Assembly: GCA_951813855.1 (NCBI GenBank)
Contig: OX638380.1
Span: forward strand, 3,798,876-3,862,875
DNA from: an uncultured Verrucomicrobiae bacterium
Lineage (GTDB): Bacteria; Verrucomicrobiota; Verrucomicrobiia; Limisphaerales; AAA164-E04
Direction of reading: 5' to 3'
Length of the DNA stretch: 64,000 nt
Below are positions 346 to 7,696 of the stretch, one piece after another. How positions within the stretch are numbered: position 1 is the stretch's first letter; each line of letters begins with the position of its first letter. The notes under the pieces were generated by a model. That model searched no databases, had not been told where the DNA came from, and saw only the letters and a program-made list of their open reading frames with translations. Both the position numbers and the translations under genes were made by a program.

Positions 346-1596
346 TCAAAAGCGTTCGGGGCTATAGGGCTCGGCATCGATGTGCGGCGGCCGGTTCTGA
401 ATTAATTCGGTTATCAACCGTCCGGTAGCCGGTGCCATACTGAGCCCCAGCATGTTGTGGCCGGTCGCCACGAAGGCGTTTTTCAAGCGGGGGGAGGGGC
501 CGATGATCGGCAGACTGTCCCAAGTCATGGGGCGCCAGCCGTGCCAGGTCTGTTGTCCGTCCGCCGAGGGATTCTCTTTAAGATAGGGGCGAGCCGAGGC
601 ATGGAGTTGCCGGATGCGATCGGGGGAAATCGTTTCGTCGTAACCGGCGAATTCCATGATGGAACCCAACCGGCAATGATCGGCGAAGGGCGTTACGCCT
701 ACCCGGTGTTCCGGGAACAACATGGAATGGGTCGGACGGATCGTCGGTTGGGGCAGCGTCGTCGAATACCCTTTGCCGGGCTCGACGGGGAGCCGGCAAC
801 GCCACTCTTGTTCCCAACGGGCGCTCCAGGCGCCGGTCGCCAGCAGGTAGTAGTCGGTCGCAATTTCGCCGCCGGTCGTTTCGGCGGCGAACGCTCGGCC
901 GCGGCGTTGCCGTAATCGCTGGAAGCTGCAGTTTTCCCGGAACTCGACTTCGAGTTCGCGCAGGCGAGCGATCCAGTTGCGATTGAGGACGTCCGGGCGC
1001 ACTTGCGCATCGCTCTCGTAGTAGAAGGCTCCAGCCAGCCCCGGGCGCAAGGCCGGTTCGAATTCCTCTAAGTCCGCTCCTGAGATCTTCCGGGCCGGGA
1101 CGCCGAATTCCTGAGTCATGATCCGGTCGGTATGTTCGTATCGAGCCAGGCCTCGTTTGGTTTGCAGCACCATCATTAAGCCCTGGTCGCGCCATTCGCA
1201 TTCCAAGTTTTCCTCTGCCACGATTCGTCGGTATTCGGCCATGGAGGAGTCGAGAATCGCTTTGATCGGACCGGCGGCCCGGATCATCTGGGAGTAGCGG
1301 CAACGGCGGGCGAACTCCCACATCCAGCGCCAGAGCGCCGGACGACATTGGGGGCGTACGCGAAAGGGCGATCCGGGGCGGAACAGCGAGGCGACGGCCG
1401 TACCGATCGCCCCGGGTTCGGTCAGGGGCAATACGTGGCTGGGACAAACGAATCCGCAATTGGCGTGCGAACAGCCCTGAGCCAATTTTCCTTGATCGAT
1501 GACCGTGACTCGGTAACCGGCTTTTCGCAAATAATAGGCGCAAGCGATTCCGACGATGCCGGCCCCGACGATTAGAATCGACGAAGAGTGCGACAA
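346..1596 (-). CDS. FAD-dependent amino-acid oxidase (DadA-like; probable D-hydroxyproline dehydrogenase)
   Basis: About 416 residues of the DAO/DadA family. Residues 7-16 read ILIVGAGIVG, the dinucleotide-binding GxGxxG motif, followed by VTVIDQG at the end of the second strand. The C-terminal half keeps the family features GWRPMTWDSLPIIG and ATGHNMLGLSMAPATG. I chose the TTG at 1596 because AGAAGGA lies five bases upstream and the FAD motif starts at once. The longer upstream frame would overlap the epimerase coding region. The start overlaps the epimerase end by 25 bases. Next to a hydroxyproline epimerase and a DapA-like gene, the likely reaction is oxidation of cis-4-hydroxy-D-proline to a pyrroline. 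Other D-amino acids are possible substrates. Confidence 0.85.
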   Translation of the reverse strand: MSHSSSILIVGAGIVGIACAYYLRKAGYRVTVIDQGKLAQGCSHANCGFVCPSHVLPLTEPGAIGTAVASLFRPGSPFRVRPQCRPALWRWMWEFARRCRYSQMIRAAGPIKAILDSSMAEYRRIVAEENLECEWRDQGLMMVLQTKRGLARYEHTDRIMTQEFGVPARKISGADLEEFEPALRPGLAGAFYYESDAQVRPDVLNRNWIARLRELEVEFRENCSFQRLRQRRGRAFAAETTGGEIATDYYLLATGAWSARWEQEWRCRLPVEPGKGYSTTLPQPTIRPTHSMLFPEHRVGVTPFADHCRLGSIMEFAGYDETISPDRIRQLHASARPYLKENPSADGQQTWHGWRPMTWDSLPIIGPSPRLKNAFVATGHNMLGLSMAPATGRLITELIQNRPPHIDAEPYSPERF

Positions 1597-2528
1597 GATA
1601 TTCCTTCTCGAAAAGGATCTTCCGGATGTTGGAGTAAAACGATTTCGCCGGTCACGTAGGCTTGGCCGGTAATGCTCGGCACGATCTCGCCGGGGCGGTC
1701 GCCGATGCGGTAGCGTCCTTGGAAACGGCTGCCCAGGATGCCTTCCTGAATCCAGGCTTGGTCCTGCGGCCAGCGTTCGTCGGCCGCCAAGCAAGCTAAT
1801 TTGGCGCTGGTTCCGGTGCCGCACGGAGAACGGTCATAGGCATTGCCGGGACAGAGGACGAAGTTGCGGCTGTGGGCGTCGGCGGCTTCCGGGGGCGAGA
1901 AAAATTCCAAATGATCGATCAGGGCGCCTTCTTCGCCGGTAATGCCGGAGTTCCATAAGGCGTCGCGGACGCGGCGGGCGCGGTCGGTAAGACAATCGAC
2001 CCGATCGAGTTTCAAGGGGACGGGGGCGTCGTCTATCAGAAAGAACCAATTGCCGCCCCAAGCCACGTCGCCCTTGATCTCGCCGAAGCCTTCGACTTCG
2101 ACGGCCACGTCTTTGCGATACCGGTAGGAGGGGACGTTTTCGACGGTCACTTCTTGAGGAGTAACCAGTTCCACCGTGACGATGCCTACCGAAGTTTCCA
2201 GACGATGGACGCCGGGTTCGATTCGGCCCAAATGGGCCAGCGAAGCGGCGACGCCGATCATCCCGTGGCCGCACATGTTCAGGTAGCCGAAGTTATTGAA
2301 AAAGATGACGCCCGAAACGCAGGACGGGTCGTAGGACGGCAACAACAGGGCGCCGACCAACACGTCGGAACCTCGAGGTTCAAGGATCGTCGTCGTGCGC
2401 AACCAGTCGTGTTCCTGTTTCAGGCGCTGGAGCCGTTCGGCCACCGAACCGTCGCCCAAGTCGGGTCCGCCTTCCAGTACCATCCGGGTAGGTTCTCCGG
2501 CGGTATGAGAATCGATCGCTCGAATCAT
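1572..2528 (-). CDS. 4-hydroxyproline epimerase (proline racemase family)
   Basis: 318 residues, the usual length of the proline racemase/hydroxyproline epimerase family. It begins MIRAIDSHTAGEPTR, the family start. Both catalytic cysteines are present: Cys86 in MCGHG and Cys236 in SPCGTGTSAK. The second Cys separates true epimerases and racemases from the trans-3-hydroxyproline dehydratase branch, which has Thr there. The predicted reaction is trans-4-hydroxy-L-proline to cis-4-hydroxy-D-proline. The ATG at 2528 overlaps the stop of the DapA-like gene as ATGA, so the two are translationally coupled. A longer upstream frame exists but lies wholly inside that gene. Proline racemase activity cannot be excluded from sequence alone. 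Confidence 0.9.
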   Translation of the reverse strand: MIRAIDSHTAGEPTRMVLEGGPDLGDGSVAERLQRLKQEHDWLRTTTILEPRGSDVLVGALLLPSYDPSCVSGVIFFNNFGYLNMCGHGMIGVAASLAHLGRIEPGVHRLETSVGIVTVELVTPQEVTVENVPSYRYRKDVAVEVEGFGEIKGDVAWGGNWFFLIDDAPVPLKLDRVDCLTDRARRVRDALWNSGITGEEGALIDHLEFFSPPEAADAHSRNFVLCPGNAYDRSPCGTGTSAKLACLAADERWPQDQAWIQEGILGSRFQGRYRIGDRPGEIVPSITGQAYVTGEIVLLQHPEDPFREGISCRTLRRF

Positions 2529-3478
2529 AGTGATTTGCCCGGCCAGTTGTCCCACCAGAGACGGAAGGCGTTGAAGTGGTGGCGGGCGAAGTTTTTTTGA
2601 CTCTCGCTGAGGGTGTCGGCAGCTATGAAATGGCGTTCGTAGCCCGGTTGGCCGCTTTCGGCCATCAGGTATTTGTAATACAGCACCAGATCGGGGCCGG
2701 CGTCGAATTGCGCCAGCGGCGCCAAGGTTTGGTCCAGTTCTCCGGCCAGTCGCCGGGCTTCTCCGTCCCCATTTACAGCGCGTTGGCACAACGAAATCAG
2801 GTGCAACACTTCGCGAGGCAACACGTTGCCGATTCCCGTGATGGCTCCCCCGGCGCCGCACCGGAGGTAGCCGTGCCGCACTTGAGTGTCGACGCCCACG
2901 ACCAGCACCAGTTCCGGTTGTTCGTTGGTGATGTGTTCGGCGGCGTAATCCAACGCTTCCGCGCCGCCGAATTCCTTGAACCCTACCAGGTTCGGAAACT
3001 GGCTCCGCAAGTCGAAGAACAATTCGGCTCGGGTTTCGAAGCCGTAATACGGACTGTTGTAGATGATGGACGGCAGTCCTTCGCCGGCTTCGAGGATGGC
3101 GGCGAAATGAGCTTTTTGCGCCGCCGGAGAAGTGCCTCGGGAAAGTACGCGGGGAATCAGCATCAAGCCTTGGGCACCGGATTTTTTCGCGTGGGCGGCG
3201 TGGGCGGCGGCCGCTTGGGAGTTCACGGCTCCGGTGCCGGCGATGACGGGAATCCCCGCTTCGACCAAGCGTTCCACCCCGGTTTGCCGTTGGCGATCTT
3301 CGAGTAGCGGCCAGTCCCCCATCGAGCCGCAGTAGACCACCGCCCGCATGCCGCCACGGATCAAATCCTTGGCGGTCGAAACGAGGCGGTCGAAATCGGG
3401 ATCGCCGTCCGACCGGCAAGGCGTCATCAATGCCGGGGAACATCCCTGAAAAACGGCAGAATTAACTTCAATCGTCAC
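2525..3478 (-). CDS. DapA-family aldolase/deaminase (candidate pyrroline-4-hydroxy-2-carboxylate deaminase)
   Basis: 317 residues with the class I aldolase TIM-barrel pattern of the DapA family. Schiff-base Lys168 sits in VGFKEFGG, the paired Tyr140 in IIYNSPYY, and a glycine-rich GSMGDWPLL segment follows strand 2. DapA itself is possible, but this is the first gene of a tightly coupled set with a hydroxyproline epimerase and a DadA-like oxidase. In known hydroxyproline pathways that partner is the deaminase turning pyrroline-4-hydroxy-2-carboxylate into 2-oxoglutarate semialdehyde. The matching semialdehyde dehydrogenase is not in the window. Its upstream region is short and runs into an insertion-sequence remnant at 3531. 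Confidence 0.85.
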   Translation of the reverse strand: MTIEVNSAVFQGCSPALMTPCRSDGDPDFDRLVSTAKDLIRGGMRAVVYCGSMGDWPLLEDRQRQTGVERLVEAGIPVIAGTGAVNSQAAAAHAAHAKKSGAQGLMLIPRVLSRGTSPAAQKAHFAAILEAGEGLPSIIYNSPYYGFETRAELFFDLRSQFPNLVGFKEFGGAEALDYAAEHITNEQPELVLVVGVDTQVRHGYLRCGAGGAITGIGNVLPREVLHLISLCQRAVNGDGEARRLAGELDQTLAPLAQFDAGPDLVLYYKYLMAESGQPGYERHFIAADTLSESQKNFARHHFNAFRLWWDNWPGKSL

Positions 3479-3530
3479 TAGTTTTCATCCTGCCGCTTCG
3501 AACCGTGGAGGGCAAGCGGGAACTTAGGCG

Positions 3531-3637
3531 CAGGACTTTTTCATGCTAATAATTCTTGGTCGACGATCGTTTTTTTATGTGCCGAGCGGAGTATTCCGAT
3601 TCGTCGGAAAAACTGTTTTCCGAATTATTCTTCGAAA
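3531..3637 (+). repeat. Solo end of an ISAs1-type element (IS scar)
   Basis: About 107 bases here match 30630-30735, with a few substitutions and small indels. That second stretch is the transposase-distal end of the ISAs1/DUF4338 element described at 30630. The copy starts with the same outer end, CAGGACTTTTT followed by GCTAATAAT. No opposite end is found nearby, so the piece is a solo scar. Its inner side runs straight into the peptidase fragment at 3638. Confidence 0.75.
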
Positions 3638-3871
3638 GTGAACATGGGCGATGGCCGCTATGCGTGGTTCGATAACCAAATTGAGATGCAAGGATTAGGG
3701 AGAGGTGGTTTCAGCCGCGGAGGAGACACTGGATCTCTGGTGTGGACTTGGGACGATGAACGGCAACCTGTAGGACTGCTCTTTGCCGGCGGAGAAAATG
3801 CGACTTTTGCCAATCAAATCGGTACAGTACTCAACGCATTTGATATCAATATCATCAGAACAGTGAATTAG
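3638..3871 (+). pseudogene. C-terminal catalytic fragment of a trypsin-like serine peptidase
   Basis: 77 codons from a GTG at 3638. The segment FSRGGDTGSLVWTW, followed by PVGLLFAGG and a hydrophobic end, is the nucleophile-Ser region of a chymotrypsin-fold peptidase (the GDSGS motif, here GDTGS). The His and Asp parts of the triad and the usual 200 or more upstream residues are missing. The coding sequence is cut by the IS scar at 3531-3637. I therefore read it as the surviving tail of a disrupted gene, although it could still be transcribed with the 87-residue gene that begins three bases after its stop. Confidence 0.6.
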
Positions 3872-3873
3872 CC

Positions 3874-4137
3874 ATGCAACAGGTAAACCGCAACGAACTA
3901 GATGGCGAGAGCATCGCAGTGGATTTCAAAGCACCGGAGACGGAAAATCCTATTCCGAAAAAGATTTACGACAGACTGCTTGCCATCGACGGGGTGAGGG
4001 GGGTTGGTATCGGAAAAGCCCGAGAATTGTGGGTGTACGTAAGGGATGGCAACGTACGACTCAGGGTGCCTAAGCATATCGATAAATTCGATATTCAGGT
4101 TCGTGTTACGGGTGAGGTTCATGCCCAACAAGGCTGA
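3874..4137 (+). CDS. Small protein resembling the N-terminal domain of trypsin-like peptidases
   Basis: 87 residues. The pattern GVRGVGIG, LWVYVRD, VPKHIDKFDIQVRVTGEVHA resembles the prodomain-like module (IDG-V-GVGIG, L-VYV, LP-IDGV-V-V-VTG) found ahead of the catalytic domain in a family of bacterial trypsin-like peptidases. Here it stands alone and lies downstream of the catalytic tail fragment, which is the reverse of the normal domain order. It may be a free-standing inhibitor or chaperone-like domain, or a second remnant of the same broken locus. There is no signal peptide. Base composition is slightly more AT-rich than its neighbours. Confidence 0.5.
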   Translation: MQQVNRNELDGESIAVDFKAPETENPIPKKIYDRLLAIDGVRGVGIGKARELWVYVRDGNVRLRVPKHIDKFDIQVRVTGEVHAQQG

Positions 4138-4493
4138 GAGAGCGCAGTTGAATGATTTGCGACCCCGAGTCGGCTTTCGGAAATGAGAACCGTTGGAGCC
4201 ATAGATTCACCGATCATTTCGAATTCGGTGGGACGCTGATGGGGGTCGGTGCCCGAGGAGGAGGTTTGCGACTTGCGGTTTCTCCATCGCCCTCTGTCCG
4301 CCGATCCCTGCCGTCCTCACTTGACTCAAATCTAGCCCGAATTTACCGGGTGCTTTGCGAGTGATATGCGATAAGTTTGCGGAGCCGTTGGCCGGGCGGT
4401 TCCGCCGGGCCAGCCGTACGCGGGCCGGAAGTTGTCGCCTGTTCTGCCCGTGCCGCTTGGTTCCTTCCGCCCGCCGCGAACGATCGCTTCGGA
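4138..4493. other. Intergenic, about 350 bases, no recognised feature
   Basis: It lies between the 87-residue gene and the convergent end of the barrel-cytochrome gene. Short open frames exist but show no recognisable motif, and I see no clear terminator. Confidence 0.4.
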
Positions 4494-6887
4494 TTAAGGG
4501 AGGGTCTGACGAAACGACAGGGCCAGGGCGTGGGCGGTGTAGTCGTTGGCGTGATTCCTGCCCGGATCCGAATAGTAATAATGGCCGTATTGCAGCTGGA
4601 TCGCGGCTTTTTGGCCCCACTTTCGGGACAGGCCCGTGACCGTGCCGTGCAGCCGGTAATCCCGGCCGATCGGAAAGTTGAAACCGGTGTTGGCTTGACT
4701 GAAATCGGCTCGGGAAAAGCTGTAAGTCGTTTGCCATTCCCAATGGTTGTCGAGCTGGATTTGGGCGTTGCCCAAGAAGGAAAGAGCCTGACCGCGGTAC
4801 GGCCGCAAGATTTCGCCGTCGGTGACGGAACTTATCGTGCGAACGTCGTTCAGGCCGGCGGTCGCGGTCAGCCGTAGCCAGCGAATCGGTTGCCCCGACA
4901 ACGAAGCCAGATAATGGTTCGAATCGTAATGGCCGGAGTGCGACTTATCGGGACTGAAAAGTTGGCCATCGTAATGCACCGGGGCGACCCGCAGTTCGTA
5001 ATCGTCGGCAATCGTGCGCCAAGTCAGGGTGGCCCGCAGTTTGCGGGAAACCCGGATGTTGAATTTAACGTGGAAGTCGTCCGTGTCGAGGCGGCGTGAG
5101 CGGATGTAGGCCGGATATCCGTCGCCGGAAGGCGTAAAGTCACCGAGATGAACGTCCCGCGGATGCCGATACCGATTCCGCCGGTCCCGTTGGCGGTAAC
5201 GGGTCTGAACGGTCAGGCGTTGCCAAGGCGACCAATTCCATCCCCAACGGAATTCCCGGCCGTCGAGCTCGGCGTCGGTGTCTCTCATGAAGTCGTCCTC
5301 GAACGGAAAATCATCGTCGACGAACTGGTCTTCGCGTTGCCCGATCCGGGATTGCCGGAGGCGGGCGTCGACGTAGAGCACCGAGCGGCGCCAGCCGGTA
5401 TAGCGGATTCCGACATTTTCTTCGGTGACGGTTTGATCGATATTCGCGCCGATTTCGGTCGGGGTCGTGCCGAAGAGCCAGAGGTCGCCTTCGCCCGACT
5501 GCCGGGTCCGGTCGTGTTGCAGACCGGTGAACAGGCTCAATCCTTTCCGGGGGACGAAATGGGAATTGACGTTAAAGACATGGGAATGGCGGTTCAGGAT
5601 AATTTGCCGGCTGGTATCGCCGGGGAAAGGTTCCGCACCCGGGTTTTCGGTCAGGAAGGAGTCCAGGTTGAATCCGGCGTCGGCGTTTTGATCAAGGTAA
5701 AGGTACCCCCCGGACAGCAACCACCAGGAACGGATTTGTTTTTCCGCCCGGAAGGTGTTGACGCCGCTGAATTGCCGGTAATCCTCCCGTACTCGGGTGT
5801 AGCTCTCGGGTATGCCGGCACCTGCCGCGGCGGAATCGGCCATCCTGCGATCGGTGTCGTTGCGGGTGAATTCGCCCCGGAAGGATTCGTCCAGTCGCCA
5901 ACCCCGCCAGTCGTGGCGAACGTCCAGTCCCACGATATGAGTGGTTTCGTCGACGGCTCGAGACGAAGGAAACAGTCCCTTGTGGGTGATGCCCGAAGGT
6001 GTTGGGCCTTGGACCGGCCCCCAATGCAGCGCGGAGGTCTCGCCGGTTCGGGTCAATCGTTGATAACTGAGTTCGATCTCCGGGCGGTCGGGAAGCGTCA
6101 ATCCCACGACCGTGCGGAAATCGCCGAAGTCGTTATGCAAGTCCCGATGAAGCGAGGGAGGGGCGGTGCCGAAGGGCGGGTAGTAGCCTCCCCAGTCGGT
6201 GTCGTAGCGGCGGAATTGCTCGTATTCGAGCCGAATGAAGCCATAATCGGGTTTGCGAAGTTCCAAATTGAGACGATGGTCTTCGGCGCCTAATAAGGAA
6301 CGAGCCTGTAAATCGAGCCGGACCCCGTTTTCCCAACGGTTGTTCCAGCTCAACTCGGAAAGCCCCCCCGAGAACCCGGCGGGATGGCGCCAGTGTTCGC
6401 GAAAAGCGCGTTCGTCGCCGTCGATCCAGGTATGGCGGAGGGTCGGTTCGTAGTGGAAAGCGATTTCCTCCCCGACCGCTTCCCATACCGGTCCTTGATC
6501 GATCCAGGCCCGGAGCGTGGCGACTTCCCCTTCGGTCAATCGCTCTCCTTTGCCAATGGGAGGCATCTCCAAATCTTCTTCGAGATAGGCGACGTAGCGA
6601 ATGAGCGGACTCTCGGCGCTGTTGCCGGGAATTATCGCCTTTCCGTAATCTCCTCCCTTCAGGGCGGTATCTTCCCGAAGCAGATTTAAGCCGCTTTTGG
6701 GTTTGGTGTCGCCGTGGCACCGCTGGCAATGAGTTTCCAGCAGCGGTTGGACGTCGGTTCGAAAATTGATGGTGCGAGTGGCCGGAGCGGGCAGTTCGGA
6801 TTCGGCCAGCGACCGGTCGGGATCGTACCCGAATAGGCCCAGGGCCAGCCAACATAGCCGTGCGAGTTGTCCGCCGCGACGATCCAT
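4494..6887 (-). CDS. Outer-membrane beta-barrel (MtrB/PioB-like) fused to an N-terminal haem-c domain
   Basis: 797 residues from the ATG at 6887. Residues about 8-29 look like a signal peptide. Residues 42-130 form a planctomycete-type cytochrome c domain: haem motif CQRCH at 54-58, PGNSAESPLIRY, and a possible axial Met at MPPIGKGE (108). From about 165 to the end the sequence is a long series of amphipathic segments rich in Tyr, Trp, Arg and Asp, such as RLEYEQFRRYDTDWGGYY and LSGGYLYLDQNADAG, as in large outer-membrane barrels of the MtrB/DUF3374 type. The gene starts eight bases from the end of the multiheme cytochrome gene on the same strand. I infer that the pair carries electrons across the outer membrane. 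Barrel family assignment is by pattern, not alignment. Confidence 0.75.
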   Translation of the reverse strand: MDRRGGQLARLCWLALGLFGYDPDRSLAESELPAPATRTINFRTDVQPLLETHCQRCHGDTKPKSGLNLLREDTALKGGDYGKAIIPGNSAESPLIRYVAYLEEDLEMPPIGKGERLTEGEVATLRAWIDQGPVWEAVGEEIAFHYEPTLRHTWIDGDERAFREHWRHPAGFSGGLSELSWNNRWENGVRLDLQARSLLGAEDHRLNLELRKPDYGFIRLEYEQFRRYDTDWGGYYPPFGTAPPSLHRDLHNDFGDFRTVVGLTLPDRPEIELSYQRLTRTGETSALHWGPVQGPTPSGITHKGLFPSSRAVDETTHIVGLDVRHDWRGWRLDESFRGEFTRNDTDRRMADSAAAGAGIPESYTRVREDYRQFSGVNTFRAEKQIRSWWLLSGGYLYLDQNADAGFNLDSFLTENPGAEPFPGDTSRQIILNRHSHVFNVNSHFVPRKGLSLFTGLQHDRTRQSGEGDLWLFGTTPTEIGANIDQTVTEENVGIRYTGWRRSVLYVDARLRQSRIGQREDQFVDDDFPFEDDFMRDTDAELDGREFRWGWNWSPWQRLTVQTRYRQRDRRNRYRHPRDVHLGDFTPSGDGYPAYIRSRRLDTDDFHVKFNIRVSRKLRATLTWRTIADDYELRVAPVHYDGQLFSPDKSHSGHYDSNHYLASLSGQPIRWLRLTATAGLNDVRTISSVTDGEILRPYRGQALSFLGNAQIQLDNHWEWQTTYSFSRADFSQANTGFNFPIGRDYRLHGTVTGLSRKWGQKAAIQLQYGHYYYSDPGRNHANDYTAHALALSFRQTLP

Positions 6888-6892
6888 GCGCG

Positions 6893-7696
6893 TTAGTACA
6901 AGAGTTTGGAATTGATCATCGAACCGTGTACGGCGGTGTGGCAGCCGGCCGTCCAGCAGGTGCCCAGTTGCAGAAAACTTTGATGATCGATCTTGCCGAT
7001 CAGTAACGCCGAGGACTCGAATTGCATTTGCGCGTGGCATCGCAGGCAGAGGTGAGAGTCACGCTGGGTGAGGAGTTTTTCGTGGATCGAGCCGTGTGGT
7101 TGATGGCAGGTGGTGCAGCCGTCTTGTATCGCTTCGTGGGCGAAGACGAAATGACGCGATTGGTCGCGATGACAGGAGATGCATTGCTGATCCTGGCGGG
7201 CCAAGGCAAGTCCGTCGGCCTGCTTGAAAATCTCGCGGCCGTGGGGATCGTGGCAATCGACGCAGTTCATTTGCCCTTCCAACACGGGGTGATGTTGCGG
7301 CAAGCGGAAATCGCCGTGTTGGCGCGTATGGCAATCCAGGCAGGCCTGCGGGTCTTTGCCGGGATTGAGAATCAAGGGCGGTCGGGCTTCCGGCGCTTGA
7401 ACGTGGAGGCTTCCGGCGCCGTGACAGGATTCGCAGCCGCTCGCTTCCGTCCCCGTCGCATCCTCCGGGAAAAACCGGGAATGAACGCTATCCGGATAGT
7501 GCCGGACGATGTCCTGATGACAGTCGGCGCAGCGTTCGTTGCCGACGAATTGGGCGCCTTCGATCCGGGGCGGAAAGCGGCGGGTATCGGGCAGGGAGGA
7601 GCAGGAGGTAGCGGTCAACAGGCCCGCGGCCAGCAAGACGACGGCAGTGATCGTCAGCGAGAACCAATGCCGGAGAAAATGTTCGATGAGAGTCAA
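6893..7696 (-). CDS. Multiheme c-type cytochrome lipoprotein (MtrA/DmsE-like)
   Basis: 267 residues. I chose the TTG at 7696, six bases after GAGGGG; it opens a signal peptide ending at a lipobox-like ATSC with Cys32. Seven canonical CxxCH sites start at residues 56, 88, 119, 145, 172, 194 and 217. An eighth, CWTAGCH at 247-253, is of the rare CX4CH type. Many extra His residues could serve as axial ligands. Spacing and size resemble the periplasmic decaheme cytochromes that dock inside MtrB-type barrels, though with fewer haems. The downstream gene is such a barrel. The likely role is electron transfer at the outer membrane. Donor and terminal acceptor are unknown. Confidence 0.85.
   Translation of the reverse strand: MTLIEHFLRHWFSLTITAVVLLAAGLLTATSCSSLPDTRRFPPRIEGAQFVGNERCADCHQDIVRHYPDSVHSRFFPEDATGTEASGCESCHGAGSLHVQAPEARPPLILNPGKDPQACLDCHTRQHGDFRLPQHHPVLEGQMNCVDCHDPHGREIFKQADGLALARQDQQCISCHRDQSRHFVFAHEAIQDGCTTCHQPHGSIHEKLLTQRDSHLCLRCHAQMQFESSALLIGKIDHQSFLQLGTCWTAGCHTAVHGSMINSKLLY

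What the first reader, a model, noticed from the sequence alone, without database searches (positions are those of the whole stretch)
4494..7696. Candidate porin-cytochrome conduit with a haem domain fused to the barrel
A multiheme lipoprotein (seven CxxCH plus one CX4CH) is encoded eight bases upstream of a 797-residue protein that joins a planctomycete-type haem-c domain to a predicted large outer-membrane barrel. MtrAB/PioAB/Omb-type conduits use a periplasmic multiheme cytochrome plugged into a barrel; the barrel itself normally carries no PSCyt1-type haem domain. A fused haem could act as entry point or as a tether. In a PVC bacterium with PSD1-type cytochromes this may be a separate lineage of outer-membrane electron transfer.
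Basis: partly seen in the sequence, partly recalled or inferred. Interest (0 to 1): 0.78.

Follow-up and report, generated by a model that had tools for sequence, protein, structure and literature searches.

The report
Outer-membrane electron wire with built-in haem
Two adjacent genes in a Verrucomicrobiota bacterium encode what looks like an electron wire through the outer membrane (the MtrA/MtrB type known from Shewanella), except that the barrel protein carries an extra haem domain at its periplasmic mouth, a variant found across the whole order that may let aerobic soil and water bacteria exchange electrons with the outside.

Summary
Gene 1 (7696-6893, minus strand) encodes an MtrA-type cytochrome lipoprotein: its eight haem motifs (seven CxxCH, one CX4CH) align colinearly with MtrA haems 1, 2 and 5-10; haems 3 and 4 are missing. 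Gene 2 (6887-4494) encodes a signal peptide, a PSCyt1 haem domain (residues 54-110) and a barrel. AlphaFold2 (pLDDT 86.9) gives 26 strands. The best PDB match by far is MtrB (6r2q_B, Z 22.2, 569 residues; next 14.0), although the window barrel shows no sequence match to MtrB. Loop lengths put both termini, and so the PSCyt1 haem, in the periplasm. Among 138 unique full-length barrels, 90 of 91 in this clade carry the haem domain; 0 of 47 in the sister clade do. The sister clade sits with MtrC-like and other multihaem genes; the fused clade has no other multihaem neighbour (0 of 56 versus 35 of 39). Most likely it is an MtrAB conduit with a tethered one-haem periplasmic relay. Direction and partners are unknown. 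Verrucomicrobial porin-multihaem clusters were described in 2017 (PMC5615132); the fused form was not found in the papers searched. New variant of a known kind.

The parts
6893..7696 (-). Octahaem cytochrome lipoprotein gene (MtrA type, 267 codons, TTG start; 7699 is an alternative TTG start)
7601..7603 (-). Codon of the invariant lipobox-like Cys32 of the cytochrome
   Evidence: Invariant in 46 aligned relatives, preceded by Ser or Ala
6938..6958 (-). CX4CH motif, aligned with haem 10 of MtrA
4494..6887 (-). PSCyt1-barrel gene, 797 aa
6558..6728 (-). PSCyt1 haem domain (residues 54-110): CxxCH at residues 54-58, invariant Met108 as probable axial ligand
   Evidence: PF07635 55.3 bits; invariant columns; 53 of 53 relatives
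4500..6473 (-). 26-strand barrel of the MtrB fold (residues 139-796)

Best explanation
The two genes encode an MtrAB-type electron conduit across the outer membrane. Shown by homology or computation: the octahaem protein is a shortened MtrA (haems 3 and 4 absent) and the barrel has the 26-strand MtrB fold. Inferred: the octahaem lipoprotein threads the barrel with its C-terminal CX4CH haem at the cell surface and its N-terminal haems towards the periplasm, as MtrA does; the PSCyt1 haem, on the periplasmic end of strand 1, is a tethered one-haem relay between the wire and periplasmic electron carriers. It would do covalently what separate periplasmic cytochromes (PmcA for MtoA, STC for MtrA) do elsewhere. 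No surface MtrC-like gene is linked to it and, in the window's family, no NapC/NirT-type quinol dehydrogenase is found, so the surface haem of the octahaem protein probably exchanges electrons directly, as proposed for PioAB/MtoAB. Direction is undetermined; electron uptake into an aerobic chain is slightly favoured.
For: MtrB fold far ahead of all other barrels. Colinear MtrA alignment and strong MtrA-family scores. Conserved gene pair. The barrel is homologous (hhalign 100%, E 8e-117) to unfused barrels that sit with a nine-haem cytochrome (MtrC/MtrF domains, PF22113 E 4e-14, in L060), a NapC/NirT-like hexahaem and an 11-haem protein with a weak cytochrome b561 match. Loop parity places both termini in the periplasm: odd loops average 11.9 residues, even 3.2. 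The model has short first strands and a helix after strand 1, as reported for MtrB. CxxCH and Met108 of the PSCyt1 domain are invariant. No NapC/NirT match in 11 of 11 genomes of the window's family; two COX1 matches in the own genome.
Against: The window barrel has no sequence match to MtrB profiles and hhalign against two MtrB sequences finds nothing. The cytochrome was not modelled well (pLDDT 53.6; haems are not modelled), and no complex of the two proteins could be predicted. No physiology is known. PSCyt1 placement follows from topology, not from a solved structure.
Confidence: 0.82

Rival explanations
1. Conduit as above, but it carries electrons outwards: periplasmic dehydrogenases or other PSCyt proteins hand electrons to the PSCyt1 domain, which passes them to the octahaem wire for disposal to humics, minerals or flavins outside.
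For: The unfused sister clade sits in what look like outward chains, with MtrC-like and NapC/NirT-like partners; 29 PSCyt1 matches in the own genome are possible donors; He et al. 2017 proposed this direction for verrucomicrobial clusters (PMC5615132).
Against: The fused clade lacks those partners, the window's family has no NapC/NirT match, and nearly all fused-type genomes have haem-copper oxidases.
Confidence: 0.4
2. The PSCyt1 domain is not part of the electron path but a structural element: it caps the periplasmic mouth of the barrel or holds the octahaem lipoprotein in place during assembly.
For: The sister clade has the same octahaem protein and barrel without it; one member of the fused clade (L135) has lost it.
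Against: CxxCH and the Met ligand are invariant in 53 relatives, which a mere cap would not need; three members have two haem domains.
Confidence: 0.15
3. A Cyc2-like fused cytochrome-porin that oxidises soluble iron by its single haem, with the octahaem protein only a periplasmic partner.
For: Same order of parts: N-terminal one-haem domain, then barrel (PMC8406198).
Against: 26 strands of the MtrB fold instead of 16; no Cyc2 motif before CxxCH; the octahaem protein is an MtrA homologue, which in MtrAB sits inside the barrel.
Confidence: 0.04

Closest known systems
MtrAB of Shewanella (PDB 6r2q) and MtoAB/PioAB
   Same: Multihaem cytochrome of the MtrA family encoded next to a 26-strand MtrB-fold barrel; like MtoAB/PioAB there is no extracellular MtrC partner at the locus
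   Different: Eight haems instead of ten (haems 3 and 4 missing), last motif CX4CH, lipoprotein-like N-terminus, barrel diverged beyond sequence recognition, PSCyt1 haem domain fused to the barrel
Verrucomicrobial porin-multihaem cytochrome clusters (He et al. 2017, PMC5615132)
   Same: Periplasmic cytochrome with eight haem sites next to a large porin in Verrucomicrobiota; some with an extracellular multihaem cytochrome, as in the unfused sister clade here
   Different: The text read does not describe a PSCyt1 domain on the porin and reports no homology to MtrAB; here the cytochrome is clearly an MtrA relative and the barrel has the MtrB fold. Sequences were not compared directly
Cyc2 cytochrome-porin
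   Same: One-haem domain fused to the N-terminus of an outer-membrane barrel, probably on the periplasmic side
   Different: Cyc2 has 16 strands, no multihaem plug and its own motif before CxxCH; here 26 strands plus a separate octahaem wire
PmcA, MtoD and STC periplasmic cytochromes
   Same: Small periplasmic cytochromes; PmcA interacts with MtoA and STC donates to MtrA; the PSCyt1 domain may do this job covalently
   Different: They are separate soluble proteins of other cytochrome families

Membership tests
MtrB/PioB outer-membrane porin (PF11854, TIGR03509) | Sequence profile match over the curated cut-off | tested here: not met
   No match for the window protein even at E 10. Some relatives reach it: L096 28.2 bits against 23 and G052 23.6; 1 of 53 at E<0.01
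MtrB/PioB outer-membrane porin (PF11854, TIGR03509) | 26-strand barrel of the MtrB fold | tested here: met
   26 strands, 6r2q_B Z 22.2 over 569 residues, next match 14.0
MtrB/PioB outer-membrane porin (PF11854, TIGR03509) | Encoded next to an MtrA-family cytochrome | tested here: met
MtrA/DmsE decahaem cytochrome (TIGR03508, NF041028) | Sequence homology to MtrA | tested here: met
   6r2q_A E 3.5e-24; TIGR03508 E 2e-40 and NF041028 E 1e-48
MtrA/DmsE decahaem cytochrome (TIGR03508, NF041028) | Score over the curated cut-off | tested here: not met
   139 bits against 192.2 and 166 against 325
MtrA/DmsE decahaem cytochrome (TIGR03508, NF041028) | Ten CxxCH haem motifs | tested here: not met
   Seven CxxCH plus one CX4CH; motifs 3 and 4 absent
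PSCyt1 planctomycete-type cytochrome c domain (PF07635) | Profile match over cut-off with CxxCH | tested here: met
   55.3 bits against 22; 53 of 53 relatives match
Cyc2 fused cytochrome-porin | 16-strand porin and AXPXFAR[QK][TY] motif before CxxCH | tested here: not met
   26 strands; motif absent from the sequence; definition from PMC8406198
Verrucomicrobial porin-MHC of He et al. 2017 | Porin with at least 20 strands next to a cytochrome with eight haem sites, in Verrucomicrobiota | tested here: met
   definition from PMC5615132
Verrucomicrobial porin-MHC of He et al. 2017 | Sequence homology to the published gene clusters | not tested
   Their sequences were not fetched
Trans-outer-membrane electron conduit (function) | Electron transfer across a membrane by the purified pair | not testable with these tools
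   Needs biochemistry

The most novel reading that the evidence does not exclude
The fused clade is a self-sufficient two-protein conduit in which a covalently attached, PVC-type one-haem relay on the sheath protein replaces the periplasmic and surface multihaem network, letting aerobic Verrucomicrobiota in ocean, lake and soil plug their periplasmic cytochrome pool straight into extracellular electron exchange.
Probability: 0.4. Interest if true: 0.78.

Novelty: new variant of a known kind. Interest (0 to 1): 0.62.

Why it matters
Extracellular electron transfer through MtrAB-type conduits is usually linked to metal-respiring or iron-oxidising specialists. Here a conduit of that fold, invisible to the standard MtrB profiles in most members, is present in about half of the sampled genomes of a Verrucomicrobiota order, with a one-haem domain built into the sheath. 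This gives a ready experiment on how electrons enter or leave the periplasmic end of the wire, since the relay is fixed in place, and it suggests that extracellular electron exchange in ordinary aerobic soil and water bacteria is under-counted.

Tried and rejected
Sequence comparison of the barrel with MtrB: phmmer and profile search of PDB, Pfam and NCBIfam, hhalign against Photobacterium MtrB alone and together with one verrucomicrobial MtrB gave no usable signal; only the fold shows it. AF2 of the cytochrome: pLDDT 53.6, not used. Genome scan with the barrel alignment: too little conservation, so the cytochrome alignment was used. Soluble non-barrel fold for residues 141-797: rejected. TonB-dependent transporter: among the next-best matches, but far weaker (Z about 13-14 against 22.2), and no TonB plug domain was found by sequence. 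A pattern search for paired CxxCH in the own genome was too strict to be a census. More MtrB sequences from plasmids: only the Photobacterium one.

Full report
What is in the window. On the minus strand, 7696-6893 encodes a 267-residue protein with seven CxxCH motifs, one CX4CH and a hydrophobic N-terminus ending in a lipobox-like Cys32; five bases after its stop codon a 797-residue protein starts at 6887 and ends at 4494. The second protein has a signal-peptide-like start, a PSCyt1 haem domain at residues 54-110 (55.3 bits, cut-off 22) and about 650 residues without any significant Pfam, NCBIfam or PDB match by sequence. The genome is a single 4.9-Mb contig. The best named matches to the cytochrome are Verrucomicrobiota, with titles such as Limisphaerales and Pedosphaera.

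The cytochrome is a shortened MtrA. It scores E 1e-48 to the GSU2203 and 2e-40 to the DmsE decahaem families, below their curated cut-offs, and 3.5e-24 to chain A of PDB 6r2q, the Mtr complex (the molecule name listed there, cystathionine beta-synthase, is evidently an annotation error). Aligned with two decahaem MtrA proteins, its eight motifs match haems 1, 2 and 5-10; haems 3 and 4 are missing and the tenth motif has become CX4CH. In 46 aligned relatives Cys32 is invariant and preceded by Ser or Ala. AlphaFold2 did not model this protein usefully.

The barrel has the MtrB fold. With 53 aligned sequences AlphaFold2 gives mean pLDDT 86.9 and 26 strands from residue 141 to the C-terminus. Foldseek ranks MtrB (6r2q_B) first; VIA-align gives Z 22.2, rmsd 3.6 over 569 residues (model 139-796), while the next entry has Z 14.0. 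The loops after odd strands average 11.9 residues and those after even strands 3.2, the usual outer-membrane pattern with both termini in the periplasm, so the PSCyt1 domain should lie at the periplasmic mouth. As in MtrB (PMC7198977) the first strands are short, and a helix follows strand 1. Sequence similarity to MtrB is almost gone: hhalign finds nothing, but a few relatives reach the MtrB_PioB cut-off (L096 28.2 bits against 23; G052 23.6).

Distribution. A barrel relative occurs in 83 of 116 genomes searched, nearly all from the window's order. Two clades exist, homologous by hhalign (100%, E 8e-117) and separated at 99% SH-aLRT in a quick tree. After removing duplicates there are 91 full-length barrels in the window's clade and 47 in the sister clade: 90 and 0 respectively carry an N-terminal CxxCH haem domain. 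The exception (L135, the same locus as L038) lies inside the clade, which fits one gain and one loss; the tree is unrooted and quick, so this is a reading, not a proof. Three members carry two PSCyt1 domains. In the aligned set PSCyt1 matches 53 of 53, with the CxxCH and the Met-Pro-Pro invariant.

Context. Loci of the sister (unfused) clade usually hold further multihaem genes: a nine-haem protein, in L060 with MtrC/MtrF domains (PF22113, 4e-14), and in L055 a NapC/NirT-like hexahaem and an 11-haem protein with a weak cytochrome b561 match. Loci of the fused clade have none: 0 of 56 against 35 of 39 with adequate flanks, Fisher p 7e-22, not corrected for relatedness. At genome level, 7 of 40 genomes with only the fused type have a NapC/NirT match, against 32 of 42 with the unfused type (the lists were transcribed by hand and include fragments; part of the contrast is built in, because some matches are the operon-linked hexahaem). 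The window's family has no NapC/NirT match in 11 of 11 genomes, and the window's genome has two COX1 matches. Three other multihaem ORFs found in its genome (79.2, 667.3 and 3110.5 kb) do not look like MtrC, but this was not a full census.

Mechanism. Shown: MtrA homology, MtrB fold, conserved pairing, periplasmic topology by loop pattern. Inferred: the octahaem protein sits in the barrel with its CX4CH end outward, because the MtrA C-terminus faces out, haem A10 lies at the interface with MtrC, and the N-terminus projects into the periplasm (PMC7198977); the PSCyt1 haem relays electrons between the wire and periplasmic carriers, comparable to PmcA, reported to interact with MtoA (PMC13390432), and STC, a donor to MtrA. 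Electron direction is open. Lack of MtrC and NapC-type partners resembles PioAB/MtoAB and, with aerobic oxidases, tilts slightly towards uptake, but oxidases are near-universal in the order (105 of 116), so this is weak.

Known or new. He et al. 2017 (PMC5615132) reported verrucomicrobial porin plus octahaem clusters, some with an extracellular multihaem cytochrome, and separately discussed PSCyt domains; the text read here does not join the two. Baker et al. 2022 (PMC8805035) surveyed mtrCAB and its main text contains neither Verrucomicrobia nor fusion/fused as words. Cyc2 (PMC8406198) is the precedent for a haem domain fused to an outer-membrane barrel. The library holds only open-licence papers, so absence from it is weak evidence. 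I rate this a new variant of a known kind.

Noticed in passing
L144 (G276), 992-5298: A canonical MtrB_PioB gene (PF11854 E 8e-105) with a decahaem MtrA upstream and a plastocyanin/azurin-family protein downstream in a Verrucomicrobiota genome; the only strong MtrB match among 289 genomes of the phylum.
   Followed up: partly
L085:972-4064, L096:9738-12482, L125:1099-3891: Barrel proteins with two tandem CxxCH/PSCyt1 domains, two of them in one Roseibacillus-labelled genome, branching together at the edge of the fused clade.
   Followed up: partly
L055:3968-13020: Unfused-type cluster of nine-haem cytochrome, octahaem MtrA, barrel, NapC/NirT-like hexahaem and an 11-haem protein with a weak cytochrome b561 match: possibly a complete quinol-to-surface chain.
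   Followed up: partly
L119, L087, L090, L109, L115: Environmental assemblies titled Klebsiella pneumoniae or Akkermansia muciniphila carry this verrucomicrobial conduit; the record names look wrong.
   Followed up: no
L049:6387-11590: A Photobacterium sp. DA100 2.1-Mb plasmid carries an mtrCAB-like set.
   Followed up: no
L093:1179-3741: A fused-type barrel broken into several frames, by frameshift or assembly error.
   Followed up: no
G000, whole genome: 29 PSCyt1 matches in the window's genome; possible partners of the barrel's PSCyt1 domain.
   Followed up: no
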